IMG/VR virus record: IMGVR_UViG_3300020474_000080
Span: 1 to 28,230 of that record
Length of the DNA: 28,230 nucleotides
Reading direction: 5' to 3' (one strand)
From: a virus
Shown: piece after piece, positions 4,358 through 8,417 of the stretch
How the letters are laid out: every line of letters begins with the position of its first letter
How positions within the stretch are numbered: the stretch's first letter is position 1
The notes under the pieces: generated by a model
Seen by the model: only the letters and a program-made list of their open reading frames with translations
The model's database searches: none
What the model was told of the DNA's origin: nothing
Made by a program: the position numbers and the translations under genes

Positions 4358-4765
4358 TTATTTTTCATATTCTTGAACAATTTGTTTCATTTCTCTTAAT
4401 GCTGATTTTAAACAAGGAACACAATTTGTTGTTTTTGTTTTTCCACCAAAATATTTTCTTCTCATTTCAAACAACACTTCTTTCTGTTTTGTATTTATAG
4501 TGTTGTCCACTTCATTCAACAATTTCTTTATCGCAAGATAGTCATTTTCAGTGACTTGAAGAAATTCCCACTTGTTTAATGGACATCTACTGAAAGACAA
4601 TTTTGTTTTTGCATCCATAAAACAACCACAAGTTCTTGTGTCACCAACTTGATCTCCAATTATAGCAGTTCCACATGTTCTTGTATTAGATTTAAAGTGT
4701 TTACATTCTTCACAAATCTTTATTCTTTTTCTTGCAAGTTGTTTATCAGCTTTAAATGGTATCAT
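4358..4765 (-). CDS. Cysteine-rich putative zinc-binding protein
   Basis: The 135-aa protein has an N-terminal cluster of cysteines: ICEECKHF, then TCGT, TCGCFMDAK and SRCPLNKW, with another C-x-x-C near the C-terminus (NCVPCLKS). This suggests one or two zinc ribbons. The rest is helical and charged. Its ATG overlaps the sigma-factor stop as ATGA, implying coupled translation. Zinc-ribbon proteins next to a phage sigma factor could act in transcription, but no family with known function is recognised and no enzyme motif is present. Confidence 0.8.
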   Translation of the reverse strand: MIPFKADKQLARKRIKICEECKHFKSNTRTCGTAIIGDQVGDTRTCGCFMDAKTKLSFSRCPLNKWEFLQVTENDYLAIKKLLNEVDNTINTKQKEVLFEMRRKYFGGKTKTTNCVPCLKSALREMKQIVQEYEK

Positions 4766-5289
4766 ATTAAATCTTTTATGTTTTTTCTGACTTTTTGTAT
4801 TGTGTATTGAATAGATTTAAAACTTATTCCTGTTTCTTCTGACAATTGTCGTACTGACAATCCAGTTTCATAATATAATTGAAACAATTTTCTGTCATAT
4901 TCATCAAAGTGCATTAAGCAATTATCAATTCTTTCATTCATATCATTTAAAGTGTTTTGATAATCTTGTGTTGAATTTATGTTTGCAAGATGTTCAAGAA
5001 ATGATTCATCACTTTGTATTTTTTTTCTTTTATATTGAACAATTTTTTTGTTGAATTGTGATTTTGCAGAATAATATTTTACCATCATTATTTTGCAGAT
5101 ATATGTTTTGATTTTTCCGGAATCAATAATGATTAAAAGTTTATTCTGATTCATGGTCATCAATTGAAGGAATGTTTCTTGAACTAAATCTTCAGACAAA
5201 TCTTTGTCTTTTGTTTGCTTAATTGCAAATCCAAGATAATATGAATAGTCTTTATATATCCACTCAATTGGATGCCACTTGTTTTTCAT
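4762..5289 (-). CDS. ECF-like sigma-70 family RNA polymerase sigma factor
   Basis: The 175-aa length and two-domain layout fit ECF-type sigma factors. Region 2 is around residues 10-66, with LSEDLVQETFLQLM matching the typical D-x-x-Q-E-x-F core. Region 4 is at about 128-172, with LSVRQLSEETGISFKSIQ as the -35-binding helix-turn-helix and a basic recognition segment (KVRKNIKDLI). The gene is late in the early operon and just upstream of packaging and virion genes, so it may redirect host RNA polymerase to late promoters. Its start overlaps the VRR-NUC stop as ATGA. A region-4-only transcription activator is the alternative. Confidence 0.82.
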   Translation of the reverse strand: MKNKWHPIEWIYKDYSYYLGFAIKQTKDKDLSEDLVQETFLQLMTMNQNKLLIIIDSGKIKTYICKIMMVKYYSAKSQFNKKIVQYKRKKIQSDESFLEHLANINSTQDYQNTLNDMNERIDNCLMHFDEYDRKLFQLYYETGLSVRQLSEETGISFKSIQYTIQKVRKNIKDLI

Positions 5290-5702
5290 TTCTTAATTAT
5301 GTAGTTGACATCAATATCTGGAATTGTGCTGTTTATGTACCATTCAATTATTTCAATTGCATGATCAAAACCTGTGCAAACATAAGATTCATATCCTTTT
5401 TCAGATAATTCATTCAGTGTTCTTCTTTGTGTTTCTGTTGCATAATTTCCCTTTACTTTTAATTCAACAGCAAGACCATGTTTAATTTTATTGTCTATTA
5501 TTCTTGATTCATAAATAAATAAATCGGGAAAACCCTTTTTATATCCAGCTTGTTTCCCTTTTAATCTTTGTGAATGATGTTTAATATATATTCCACCAAG
5601 TGATCCATTTATGAAAACTGATGGATGTTGCAACTTCATATATTTAATAATTGATTTTTGAAGTTCATGTTCAGTCTGTTTTCGCATATATTTTCTTTCC
5701 AT
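5286..5702 (-). CDS. VRR-NUC domain nuclease
   Basis: A PD-(D/E)XK-type nuclease of the VRR-NUC family used by phages as a small, often resolvase-like, structure-specific endonuclease. The core is visible: GFPDLFI (D60), GLAVELKVKGN (E80, K82), then TETQRRTLNEL with Q92, followed by the GYESYVCTGFDHA segment typical of the family end. The length (138 aa) is normal for phage single-domain forms. ATG 5702 is used; a second ATG at 5687 (MRKQTEHELQ) would reduce the overlap with the upstream micro-ORF. It lies in the DNA-metabolism block between the ABC/GNAT fusion and the sigma factor. Confidence 0.9.
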   Translation of the reverse strand: MERKYMRKQTEHELQKSIIKYMKLQHPSVFINGSLGGIYIKHHSQRLKGKQAGYKKGFPDLFIYESRIIDNKIKHGLAVELKVKGNYATETQRRTLNELSEKGYESYVCTGFDHAIEIIEWYINSTIPDIDVNYIIKK

Positions 5703-5793
5703 TAATTGTTGGAACTGATTTTTCTATATAGTAATTTTTGTGATTTACATAAAATTCACCATTGTCTTTTGTTCCAAATTGTAATTCCCACAT
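5671..5793 (-). CDS. Small hypothetical protein (40 aa or slightly longer)
   Basis: This frame fills most of the 126-bp gap between the ABC/GNAT gene and the nuclease gene. From ATG 5793 it encodes MWELQFGTKDNGEFYVNHKN and ends INGKKIYAKTD. An in-frame GTG at 5805 would add VTKT, and a TTG near the upstream stop could extend it further. It overlaps the nuclease start by 32 bp. The composition is protein-like and beta-rich, but no function is recognised. Confidence 0.45.
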   Translation of the reverse strand: MWELQFGTKDNGEFYVNHKNYYIEKSVPTINGKKIYAKTD

Positions 5794-5828
5794 TGTTTTA
5801 GTCACCAACTTAATTTCTTTTTTATCTT

Positions 5829-6968
5829 TCAAAACATTGATATTTGATTCTGTGCAACATCTTTGTATGCATCAGCATTGAACATAATAAAGTCAGAAAC
5901 ATCTTCTGATTTGTGTCCAATATATTTATATGAATACGATTCACGCATTATTATCTTTCTGCCACTTGTATCATTTGATGGTTTTCTTAAATTCCCAGCA
6001 GTTGCAATCCATTCATCATCTTTTGATAATGCAATTCCAAGTGCTGGTTGCATTGTTCTTATAAACATCTGATGATCTTCTTTCCAATATATTGAAGATA
6101 AATAATTTAATATTTTTTTTCCAATACCCAAACCCTGAAAATCTGGAAGAACAACAAGTCTTGAAACCCTTCTTGTTTTGGGATCACCAACACCAGGAAA
6201 AGGAAGTATTCCAGCAAATGCAACTGCTTTATCATTCCATGTAATTAAATATGATTGACAAGATGTGTTCAAATCACTGCTTAAATAATGATGTTGTTTA
6301 AATAAATTCCAAGTTTCATATCTGCATCTGAATATCTGAAGTTTAATTTTTGGTCGGCATTGCCTGGGATCTAATTTTTCAAGTCTTCCTTTTGCAGGTG
6401 AATAAACCCAATCAGGCAACAACCATTCAATTATATCATAATGACATGATGCAAATATAATTTTTTTGTTGTGTCTTTTAATATATTTACCAATAGCATA
6501 AGACATTGACTTTGCAACATCACGATCAACAACAGATGTGTATTCATCAATTAATATTGTTTCATTGTCTTGTGCTTTTCCAATTAGATATGCCAATCTT
6601 GCTCTATATTGTTCACCATTTGACAATGTGTGATATGGTCTTAACCATGTTGGAACAGATGAAAGTCCTATTGCTGACAACAATCTTGTTGCTTCAGCTG
6701 GTTGTAAAAAATCAAAATTTGATATTAAAGAATCCGTGTCAGAAAAATGCACATTTTTTATTGTTCCAAATGATTTAAGAATTGATGTTTTACCACTTCC
6801 AGATCCACCATAAACAACTCCAATGTTAAAATCAGAATTTACAATGTTGTGAATATTGTTTTCAATTGTTGTAATTGTTTCTTTTGAATTCTGAATATCA
6901 TAATTTTCTATGACATATCTTGTATATGCATCATCATTAATTGATGATTTATGAATTATCTTGTTCAT
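5829..6968 (-). CDS. ABC-type ATPase fused to a GNAT acetyltransferase-like domain
   Basis: This is a two-domain protein of 379 aa. Residues about 30-200 form a soluble ABC ATPase: Walker A GGSGSGKT (54-61), signature LSNGEQ (115-120), Walker B TILIDE (137-142) and switch histidine H176 in FASCHYD. No transmembrane segments are seen, so it is not a transporter. Residues about 205-350 resemble a GNAT domain: FKQHHYLSSDL (223-233), then VSRLVVLPDFQGLGIGKKIL with the acetyl-CoA-loop pattern Q-x-x-G-x-G. The domain order matches the COG2401-type ABC-ATPase/acetyltransferase fusions. The HHYL-type GNAT is reminiscent of Mom-like DNA-modifying enzymes. The substrate is unknown; DNA or base modification is inferred, and protein or small-molecule acetylation is also possible. 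Confidence 0.85.
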   Translation of the reverse strand: MNKIIHKSSINDDAYTRYVIENYDIQNSKETITTIENNIHNIVNSDFNIGVVYGGSGSGKTSILKSFGTIKNVHFSDTDSLISNFDFLQPAEATRLLSAIGLSSVPTWLRPYHTLSNGEQYRARLAYLIGKAQDNETILIDEYTSVVDRDVAKSMSYAIGKYIKRHNKKIIFASCHYDIIEWLLPDWVYSPAKGRLEKLDPRQCRPKIKLQIFRCRYETWNLFKQHHYLSSDLNTSCQSYLITWNDKAVAFAGILPFPGVGDPKTRRVSRLVVLPDFQGLGIGKKILNYLSSIYWKEDHQMFIRTMQPALGIALSKDDEWIATAGNLRKPSNDTSGRKIIMRESYSYKYIGHKSEDVSDFIMFNADAYKDVAQNQISMF

Positions 6969-7496
6969 TTAATTATTTTTTTTTAACCAATCTTTTTTTG
7001 TCATTTCACTTGTTCTTTCTGCAAGACTTGACCAATTTGAATTGTATTGTGAATGTTGTTTTTCTCTTTCAGTAACAATCATGCCTGTTCTTGTGATGTC
7101 GTATCTGATTAACCATTCAAAAATCATACCTCCGTCAATTCTGTCAAATACTTTTTCATTCATTTTAGCAAGTTTAAAACACATTGCAAGATCATACCAA
7201 TTGAAATAAGAGAATTTTTCTACTATCATGTATGAAGTTTCTTCAAGCTGACTTTTATCCATCTTGTTTTTGCAATTGTAAAAATCTTGAAACTTTATTA
7301 ACAACAACATAATTATGTCAATTGTTTTTTGTTCTTCTTTTAAGAATTGTTTTTTTAATGATGGCGGCTTGTTATCAAGAGCAATTGAAACAATGTCATT
7401 CATTTTCATTTTCAGAATTTGTTTATTAAATTCTGGTTGCATAGGTGACAAAATTTTATTGTCGATACTTGGCAAGGATGTCATTTGCAATGTCAT
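6969..7496 (-). CDS. Replication-module hypothetical protein (175 aa)
   Basis: The start is MTLQMTSLPSIDNKIL, and a second ATG four codons later is equally possible. The protein is helical, with a distinctive segment FNWYDLAMCFKLAKMNEKVF followed by DRIDGGMIFEWLIRYDI, and a polar tail ending MTKKDWLKKNN. Similar segments occur, as far as I recall, in Bacteroidota phage and prophage proteins beside replication initiators. It overlaps the initiator-like gene by 41 bp. A helicase-loader or initiator-partner role is possible from position, but no ATP-binding motif is present, so the function is unassigned. Confidence 0.72.
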   Translation of the reverse strand: MTLQMTSLPSIDNKILSPMQPEFNKQILKMKMNDIVSIALDNKPPSLKKQFLKEEQKTIDIIMLLLIKFQDFYNCKNKMDKSQLEETSYMIVEKFSYFNWYDLAMCFKLAKMNEKVFDRIDGGMIFEWLIRYDITRTGMIVTEREKQHSQYNSNWSSLAERTSEMTKKDWLKKNN

Positions 7497-8208
7497 TTTG
7501 TTTAGTTGTTTGTTTTAGTTGTTGAATAATGTTTACCAAATTAGAATTTATCTGTGACAATTTAACTTGTTTTTGCAAAAATGGTTCAAGATTATTCCAA
7601 TTTTTAAATATGTATTTTAAAGCATTTAAAATATTTTCTTGACTATCATCACCTTTCTGTTTGCAAAGTGTCTTTAAATAGCTTAAAATTGACTTCATTG
7701 CTTTACCTTGAACTGAATCAATCTTTGCAGGTGCATCAAAATTTGACAAACAAAATTTGTGATAAATGTCAATAGACATTTTATATATGGTTTTAGTATC
7801 TGTGTTTTTAGTATATGGTATTGGTTTCTCTTTTTCATCAAATGCATTTTGCTTTTTATCAGATTGCATTTCTGTTTTTATAGAATTGCATTTTTGTTTA
7901 AGAAGAAATCTTTGTTCATCTACTATTGCAAACCATTTTGTTCTATCATATTTTAACTGATTGTAATTACCAGACTTAATGATTTTTTGCTTTTCAAGTG
8001 ATTTAATAGTTCTTGAAATTTGATGTTTTGTCAAATAAGGAAACAAACCACCAAATGCACTCACTGAATTATAAGTCCAAGTGTGTCCATCATGGTGGTG
8101 TTTCTTATTATGTTTGTTCTTGCTGATCCAAAAAATGAAATGTTTCATCATTATGGCTTCAGAAAGACCAATTTCTTTTGCAAGATGTATGTCAAAAGAA
8201 TGTTCCAT
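7456..8208 (-). CDS. Replication initiator-like winged-helix protein
   Basis: The N-terminal 110 residues look like the winged helix of phage replication initiators: EHSFDIHLAKEIGLSEAIMM, then DGHTWTYNSVSAFGGLFPYL, TKHQISRTIKSLEKQKII and DRTKWFAIVDEQ. A polar linker with charged K/E/T residues follows, then a helical C-terminal domain (residues about 150-250). The start is placed at ATG 8208; the longer frame to 8214 would begin with TTG. It lies downstream of the SSB-like and HTH genes and upstream of a partner gene. No phage polymerase or helicase is present, so it likely recruits the host replisome at a phage origin. Confidence 0.78.
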   Translation of the reverse strand: MEHSFDIHLAKEIGLSEAIMMKHFIFWISKNKHNKKHHHDGHTWTYNSVSAFGGLFPYLTKHQISRTIKSLEKQKIIKSGNYNQLKYDRTKWFAIVDEQRFLLKQKCNSIKTEMQSDKKQNAFDEKEKPIPYTKNTDTKTIYKMSIDIYHKFCLSNFDAPAKIDSVQGKAMKSILSYLKTLCKQKGDDSQENILNALKYIFKNWNNLEPFLQKQVKLSQINSNLVNIIQQLKQTTKQNDIANDILAKYRQ

Positions 8209-8210
8209 TG

Positions 8211-8417
8211 TCAATTGTTTATTGCTTTGAATATTTTTAATTCAGAAATCTGCTTCAATTTAGCAATTTTTTTAATTTGTGAATTCATCAAACTTGGATC
8301 TGAAAGATAAGTGTCAAGTGTTACTCTTGACAAGTTCAGTTCTTTTGCCATGTTTGATTTTGATTCAAACAAATTTTTAAACAATTGTTCTGCTTTGTTT
8401 TTAGGTGACCAAGTCAT
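8211..8417 (-). CDS. Small helix-turn-helix DNA-binding protein
   Basis: This 68-aa basic protein has a probable HTH at residues about 20-45 (NMAKELNLSRVTLDTYLSDP), resembling homeodomain-like or Cro-like motifs, followed by a helical tail. Its ATG shares a base with the SSB-like gene's stop (TGATG). The initiator-like gene follows immediately. It could be a transcriptional regulator of the early operon or an origin-binding helper. It is too short for a CI-type repressor and no integrase is present. Confidence 0.72.
   Translation of the reverse strand: MTWSPKNKAEQLFKNLFESKSNMAKELNLSRVTLDTYLSDPSLMNSQIKKIAKLKQISELKIFKAINN

What the first reader, a model, noticed from the sequence alone, without database searches (positions are those of the whole stretch)
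5829..6968. ABC-ATPase fused to a GNAT domain with a Mom-like HHYL segment in the DNA-metabolism operon
The ATPase half has every ABC hallmark but no membrane part; the other half has a GNAT-like acetyl-CoA loop and an F-K-Q-H-H-Y-L-S motif. The order matches the COG2401 type of fusion. GNAT-fold Mom modifies DNA adenine in phage Mu, so a DNA-modifying or anti-restriction function is attractive. The neighbours are a VRR nuclease and replication proteins. The function of this fusion is not established.
Basis: partly seen in the sequence, partly recalled or inferred. Interest (0 to 1): 0.75.

Follow-up and report, generated by a model that had tools for sequence, protein, structure and literature searches.

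The report
Phage ABC-ATPase/acetyltransferase DNA-modification candidate
A phage gene joins an ATP-burning clamp domain to an acetyl-transfer domain; close relatives of it sit exactly where other phages keep Mom, the enzyme that disguises phage DNA from bacterial defences, so it is probably a second, ATP-driven way of chemically disguising phage DNA, from a family that was predicted before but, as far as could be found, never tested.

Summary
The N-terminal half is a hydrolysis-competent, membrane-free ABC ATPase. The C-terminal half is a canonical GNAT with an intact acyl-CoA loop and an almost invariant F-x-x-H-H-Y-L motif (119 non-redundant relatives; confident AlphaFold2 model). It belongs to PHROG 11143. 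The family was already predicted by Iyer/Aravind to acylate a DNA base (named example: Tenacibaculum phage pT24, 50% identical). I found no experimental test in the papers I could search.

New evidence from here: (1) in Mu-like prophages the sister clade sits directly behind com, the translational activator of mom; (2) in two related Porphyromonas phages the cassette and mom occupy the same slot between homologous flanks; (3) the more distant clade is tied to an upstream ParB-like gene, and ParB also precedes some mom genes; (4) a ~45-residue ParB C-tail occurs only with this family; (5) some cassettes add a formyltransferase-like gene.

The window's own clade lacks ParB, Com and formyltransferase. 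Best explanation: ATP-dependent acylation of a DNA base, a functional counterpart of Mom. Membership of the Mom family is not supported; the 'COG2401 order' claim is doubtful. The modified base, acyl donor and protection are untested.

The parts
5829..6968 (-). ABC-ATPase/GNAT fusion gene, 379 aa
   Evidence: ORF and translation; PHROG 11143 E=2e-137; AlphaFold2 pLDDT 90.4, pTM 0.85
6360..6968 (-). ABC ATPase half (residues 1-203)
   Evidence: Motifs in 119 relatives; fold search matches ABC nucleotide-binding domains; shared with an archaeal GNAT-ABC protein, hhalign E=3e-17
6786..6809 (-). Walker A GGSGSGKT (54-61)
   Evidence: Invariant G54 S56 G57 G59 K60
6603..6626 (-). ABC signature LSNGEQYR (115-122)
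   Evidence: L115 S116 G118 R122 at 100%
6522..6560 (-). Walker B and D-loop, TILIDEYTSVVDR (137-149)
   Evidence: D141 E142 S145 R149 at 100%
6408..6449 (-). H-loop with family-specific SCHYDIIEWLLPDW (174-187)
   Evidence: C175 H176 D178 W182 W187 at least 99%
5901..6359 (-). GNAT half (residues 204-356)
   Evidence: Pfam GNAT; model pLDDT 92.5; fold matches to RimI-type GNATs
6279..6302 (-). FKQHHYLS motif (223-230), in register with Mom HYS
   Evidence: F223, Y228 100%, H227 99%, L229 92%; weak Mom alignment
6120..6161 (-). Acyl-CoA loop RLVVLPDFQGLGIG (270-283)
   Evidence: R270 V272 P275 G279 100%, Q278 98%, G281 96%, G283 95%
6969..7496 (-). Upstream neighbour, unknown function, abuts the gene; not a ParB
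   Evidence: PHROG 35728; no ParB_N anywhere in the record
7456..8214 (-). Replication initiation / helicase-loader-like gene
   Evidence: PHROG 11233 E=3e-35, PHROG 6493
5671..5832 (-). Small 53-aa ORF directly downstream
   Evidence: ORF scan
5286..5702 (-). VRR-NUC nuclease
   Evidence: Pfam VRR_NUC E=2e-8
4762..5289 (-). Sigma-70-like factor
   Evidence: Pfam Sigma70_r4_2 E=5e-6

Best explanation
The protein is a phage nucleobase acyltransferase for the phage's own DNA. The ABC half, probably dimerised around ATP as other ABC domains do, binds or clamps DNA and uses ATP hydrolysis to present a base. The GNAT half takes an acyl group from an acyl-CoA bound at the RxVxxPDxQGxGxG loop, and residues around HHYL put it on an exocyclic amine of that base. 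The product would shield phage DNA from restriction, so it works like Mom while being a different, ATP-driven enzyme. Shown here: domain anatomy, conservation, purifying selection, and (in a sister clade) com linkage and occupation of the mom slot. Inferred: that the target is DNA, the dimer and clamp action, the acyl group and base, the protection, and that the window's solo form has the same target as the sister clade. A mechanistic precedent from general knowledge is TmcA, which joins a RecD-like ATPase to a GNAT and makes N4-acetylcytidine in tRNA with ATP.
For: Intact ATPase and acyl-CoA motifs in 119 relatives; confident model of both domains. Com (PF10122) above cut-off and directly upstream in seven Mu-like loci, one Com match per record, none in 14 control genomes; none of the nine Mu-like records has Mom. 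In two Porphyromonas phages flanks of 85% (3.2 kb) and 83% (87 bp) identity enclose tail ORF + ABC-GNAT + formyltransferase-like gene in one and Mom in the other. ParB lies upstream in 62 of 71 genome loci and also directly upstream of some mom genes. The published prediction for the family is the same.
Against: No base modification has been measured. Com and mom-slot evidence comes from the formyltransferase-linked clade (9 leaves, support 1.0), not the window's clade, which is 57 of 59 without ParB and sits among replication and recombination genes. The GNAT half looks like ordinary protein and small-molecule GNATs. Mom homology is marginal. Phage PX29 carries both Mom and this gene, so they are not strictly interchangeable.
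Confidence: 0.62

Rival explanations
1. It acetylates a host protein (for example RNA polymerase, a ribosomal protein or a defence protein) to take over the cell, as phiKMV Rac is described to act on RNA polymerase; the ABC half supplies a switch or a protein-binding platform.
For: The GNAT half's fold matches include RimI and other protein acetyltransferases; several phage GNATs are described as protein modifiers; the window gene lies in an early-looking replication region.
Against: Does not explain occupation of the mom slot, com linkage or the ParB partner.
Confidence: 0.17
2. It acylates RNA (tRNA or rRNA), a phage counterpart of TmcA.
For: ATPase plus GNAT architecture resembles TmcA (general knowledge); the ABC half has weak sequence similarity to ABC-F and ABCE proteins that act on ribosomes.
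Against: Neighbours are DNA replication, recombination and packaging genes, ParB, and the com/mom locus; no RNA-modification neighbours seen.
Confidence: 0.11
3. Catalysis on DNA is not the point: the ABC half senses a host nuclease or damaged DNA end and the GNAT half marks or neutralises the attacker (direct anti-defence).
For: Best PDB sequence match of the ABC half is AriA of the PARIS defence system (E=1e-5).
Against: The similarity is generic to soluble ABC ATPases; nothing ties the family to a particular defence system, while com and mom-slot linkage points to DNA modification.
Confidence: 0.06
4. It is an ATP-binding subunit of a membrane transporter, as many databases annotate it.
For: Records annotate it as 'ABC transporter' or 'hemin importer ATP-binding subunit'.
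Against: No permease among the recurrent neighbour families identified, no conserved Q-loop glutamine, fused or paired with a GNAT, phage DNA-gene context.
Confidence: 0.01

Closest known systems
ABC-ATPase/GNAT family predicted for DNA acyl modification (Iyer et al. 2013; jumbo phage paper PMC7824862, example phage pT24); PHROG 11143
   Same: Same domain pair in the same order; 50% identity to the pT24 protein, 68% to Nonlabens phage P12024S; same predicted activity
   Different: The window copy is a solo gene without ParB, Com or formyltransferase; the Com and mom-slot evidence here comes from a sister clade. The 2013 paper could not be read here
Phage Mu Mom (PF25680, PDB 8bv8)
   Same: Acyltransferase-superfamily enzyme (per literature); HYS in register with HHYL; shared Com and ParB neighbours and the same slot in related phages for the sister clade
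   Different: Mom shows no RxVxxPDxQGxGxG loop in its alignment and has no ABC half; no significant Mom-family match for P0001
TmcA tRNA cytidine acetyltransferase (general knowledge)
   Same: ATPase plus GNAT in one chain, acylating a nucleobase amine at the cost of ATP
   Different: RecD-type helicase rather than ABC ATPase; acts on tRNA; not compared by computation here
Archaeal GNAT-ABC fusion L359, candidate for the COG2401 type
   Same: Homologous ABC half (hhalign 98.9%, E=3e-17); GNAT with FHYRG and RIVIHPEFRGMGLG
   Different: Reverse domain order (GNAT first) and 630 aa
DndD-type ABC ATPase in DNA phosphorothioation
   Same: Soluble ABC ATPase serving a DNA-modifying system, with ParB-like DndB as a companion in many genomes (PMC10853773)
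   Different: Sulphur chemistry and a coiled-coil ABC ATPase; no GNAT in the modification module

Membership tests
Phage ABC-GNAT family (PHROG 11143; predicted DNA acyl-modifier) | Full-length homology to the family | tested here: met
   E=1.9e-137 over 3-357 of 379; 49.6% to pT24 over 98%
Phage ABC-GNAT family (PHROG 11143; predicted DNA acyl-modifier) | Intact Walker A/B, signature, H-loop | tested here: met
   Key residues at least 98% conserved and present in the window protein
Phage ABC-GNAT family (PHROG 11143; predicted DNA acyl-modifier) | GNAT fold with acyl-CoA loop | tested here: met
   Model pLDDT 92.5 and GNAT fold matches; QGLGIG loop
Phage ABC-GNAT family (PHROG 11143; predicted DNA acyl-modifier) | ParB-like partner or ParB C-tail upstream | tested here: not met
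   No ParB_N in the window; this partner is typical only of the more distant clade, so I do not treat it as family-defining
Phage ABC-GNAT family (PHROG 11143; predicted DNA acyl-modifier) | Acylated base in phage DNA | not testable with these tools
   Needs nucleoside mass spectrometry
Mom family (PF25680) | Match to the Mom model above cut-off | tested here: not met
   No PF25680 match for P0001; relatives only 14-15 bits against a cut-off of 27.1
Mom family (PF25680) | HYS and SFAD-type conserved segments | tested here: inconclusive
   HY in register with HHYL; the remaining Mom segments did not align
Mom family (PF25680) | Occupies the com/mom locus | tested here: not met
   Not so for the window gene; it holds only for a sister clade: seven Com-linked loci and the Porphyromonas pair
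COG2401-type fusion | Same domain order as the cellular fusion | tested here: inconclusive
   One archaeal relative has GNAT-ABC, opposite to the window; its COG identity was not verified, and no COG library or paper was on hand
ABC transporter ATP-binding subunit | Q-loop glutamine and membrane partner | tested here: not met
   No conserved Gln between Walker A and signature; no permease among the recurrent neighbour families identified

The most novel reading that the evidence does not exclude
An ATP-driven DNA-base acylation machine that replaces Mom in some phages: an ABC-GNAT engine that works with a small adaptor derived from the ParB C-terminus (found only with this engine) and, in one clade, a formyltransferase-like enzyme that elaborates or supplies the acyl group, giving a DNA base modification not yet described.
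Probability: 0.4. Interest if true: 0.78.

Novelty: new member of a known kind. Interest (0 to 1): 0.52.

Why it matters
Mom is the known example of a bulky adenine modification made by a GNAT-fold enzyme. A widespread second enzyme that takes over its genomic slot, carries its own ATPase and has dedicated partners would be a different route to protected phage DNA, relevant to restriction escape, to sequencing artefacts in phage genomes, and as a possible tool enzyme. It turns a decade-old computational prediction into a direct test with named phages: P12024S, the Porphyromonas phage pair and Komp_PAO1_1.

Tried and rejected
Transporter reading: rejected (no permease among the recurrent neighbour families identified, no Q-loop Gln). 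Mom-family membership of the GNAT half: not supported. ParB partner for the window gene: searched and not found in the record. A Mom scan with a single sequence gave only close copies, so it was repeated with an alignment. Literature: Iyer 2013 and the 2020 ABC ATPase classification are not held; 'COG2401' has no hits. The archaeal survey was limited to 156 genomes of one phylum; one GNAT-ABC relative was found. The promoter and terminator scan gave promoter-like matches at chance level (45 found, 47 expected) and was not used. L168 has the tail ORF and formyltransferase, but its Com match lies at the end of a contig where the locus is not, so it was not counted as com-linked.

Full report
OBSERVATION. 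The reported coordinates are exact, but the gene is on the minus strand: plus-strand translation is full of stops, while the minus strand gives a 379-residue protein, P0001. Pfam sees GNAT at 217-293 (E=2e-8) and only sub-threshold ATPase matches. PHROG 11143 (unknown function) covers nearly the whole protein at E=2e-137.

ANATOMY. In 119 non-redundant full-length relatives the Walker A, the signature L115 S116 G118 R122, D141 E142, D-loop S145 x x D148 R149 and H176 are essentially invariant, so the ATPase should bind and hydrolyse ATP (the inference is mine). A family-specific stretch, SCHYDIxEWLxPDW, follows the H-loop. No Q-loop glutamine is conserved. In the GNAT half F223, H227, Y228 and the loop R270-V272-P275-Q278-G279-G281-G283 are 95-100% conserved. 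The AlphaFold2 model is confident (pLDDT 90.4, pTM 0.85). Its first half matches ABC nucleotide-binding domains. The GNAT half modelled alone (pLDDT 92.5) matches ordinary GNATs such as RimI at TM about 0.65. Close pairs of relatives have dN/dS 0.03-0.3. In several Gram-positive phages the two halves are separate adjacent genes.

PRIOR ART. A 2021 survey of jumbo phages states that the authors had earlier identified a GNAT coupled to an ABC ATPase, predicted to make an uncharacterised acyl modification of a DNA base, and names phage pT24 (PMC7824862; reference 136 = Iyer et al. 2013). P0001 is 49.6% identical to the pT24 sequence over 98% of its length. The window gene is therefore a member of a family whose function was already predicted but, as far as I could find, not tested. 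The 2013 paper itself was not readable here.

CONTEXT IN RELATIVES. I collected 178 non-redundant loci. An upstream ParB-like gene or tail was found in 62 of 71 genome loci and 9 of 16 named-phage loci, but only 4 of 90 viral loci, which were chosen by closeness to P0001. By similarity to P0001, ParB occurs in 3 of 81 close and 71 of 95 more distant loci. On the tree the window lies in a clade that is 57 of 59 without ParB (support 0.979). Its own neighbours are replication, VRR-NUC, sigma-like and packaging genes, in an order similar to P12024S.

LINK TO MOM. In seven Mu-like loci (L091, L141, L143, L149, L151, L166, L176) a Com gene (PF10122) lies within about 450 bp upstream; Com activates translation of mom in phage Mu (PMC6483171). 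Com passes the Pfam cut-off in these records, each has a single Com match, and none of 14 control genomes has one. None of the nine Mu-like records has a Mom gene. In the Porphyromonas pair phage006a (L092) and phage012a (L256), 3.2 kb to the left (84.7% identity) and 87 bp at the right end (82.8%) are homologous; between them one phage has a tail ORF, ABC-GNAT and a formyltransferase-like gene, the other has Mom. In Pseudomonas phages Komp_PAO1_1 and JD024 the com region is alike (70%) and is followed by ABC-GNAT in one and Mom in the other. ParB-like genes also stand directly upstream of mom in Microbacterium phage Appa (L258) and in L355 and L356. T4-like phage PX29 carries both Mom and ABC-GNAT at separate places. 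This is contextual evidence for interchangeable function, and it belongs to one sister clade.

A PARB TAIL. The C-terminal 45-50 residues of these ParB proteins occur with the ParB domain in 61 genes directly upstream of ABC-GNAT and without it in 10, mostly as short ORFs. In the Com-type loci the short ORF ends at the ABC-GNAT start and in most overlaps the end of com, as mom overlaps com in Mu. The four ParB proteins in Mom loci lack the tail. I infer an adaptor that binds ABC-GNAT. The window clade lacks it.

FORMYLTRANSFERASE-LIKE PARTNER. A Formyl_trans_N gene (PF00551) follows ABC-GNAT in a monophyletic clade (9 leaves, support 1.0) and in 0 of 103 Mom loci. Its motif reads G-Y/F-HPSLLP where, from general knowledge, classical formyltransferases have N-x-H, so its chemistry may differ.

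RELATION TO MOM AND COG2401. Profile comparison puts HHYL in register with Mom's HYS, but P is only 0.019 and one of 60 column-shuffled controls scored higher. In P335, LE4 and Pmp13 the only Mom-model match in the phage genome falls on this segment, below the cut-off. Mom's alignment shows no comparable CoA loop. So the protein works like Mom, if the context is a guide, but is not shown to be a Mom.

MECHANISM. Shown: motifs, folds, selection and genomic exchange in a sister clade. Inferred: ATP-dependent DNA clamping by an ABC dimer, base presentation, acyl transfer from acyl-CoA to an exocyclic amine near H227/Y228, protection from restriction. TmcA is the mechanistic precedent I know of (general knowledge). 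The acyl group and the base cannot be named from sequence.

VERDICT. A real, well-conserved member of a known but untested predicted family, with new contextual support that it is a functional counterpart of Mom.

Noticed in passing
L091, L092, L141, L143, L149, L151, L168, L176 (short ORFs ending at the ABC-GNAT start): 42-82 aa ORFs that consist mainly of the ParB C-terminal tail without the ParB domain, ending at the ABC-GNAT start.
   Followed up: partly
L006:1823-2473, L166:9026-9625, L091:5981-6598 and relatives: Formyltransferase-like genes next to ABC-GNAT that lack the classical active-site Asn (G-Y/F-HPSLLP instead of N-x-H); none in 103 Mom loci.
   Followed up: partly
L359:511-2403: Archaeal 630-aa protein with GNAT first and a homologous ABC half second; found in 1 of 156 genomes of its phylum.
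   Followed up: partly
L003:5001-6173 (phage pT24): The pT24 copy is annotated as two ORFs in one frame (253 and 113 aa), so a stop lies inside the GNAT half, although this is the family's named example in the literature.
   Followed up: no
L096:5525-6355; L004:4998-6161; L005:4986-5663: Misleading public annotation of family members: 'DNA polymerase', 'hemin importer', 'ABC-transporter'.
   Followed up: no
L074:6970-8765; related clusters in L079, L082: Uroporphyrinogen decarboxylase and coproporphyrinogen oxidase genes beside ABC-GNAT on viral contigs.
   Followed up: no
L098, L099: Contigs filed under archaeal MAGs carry genes 41-53% identical to the window protein; they may be phage contigs binned wrongly.
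   Followed up: no
L095 (Aeromonas phage PX29): A T4-like phage with both Mom and ABC-GNAT, a good strain for asking whether the two make different marks.
   Followed up: no
window 4762-5289: Sigma-70-like factor in the same minus-strand gene row, also present near the gene in P12024S.
   Followed up: no
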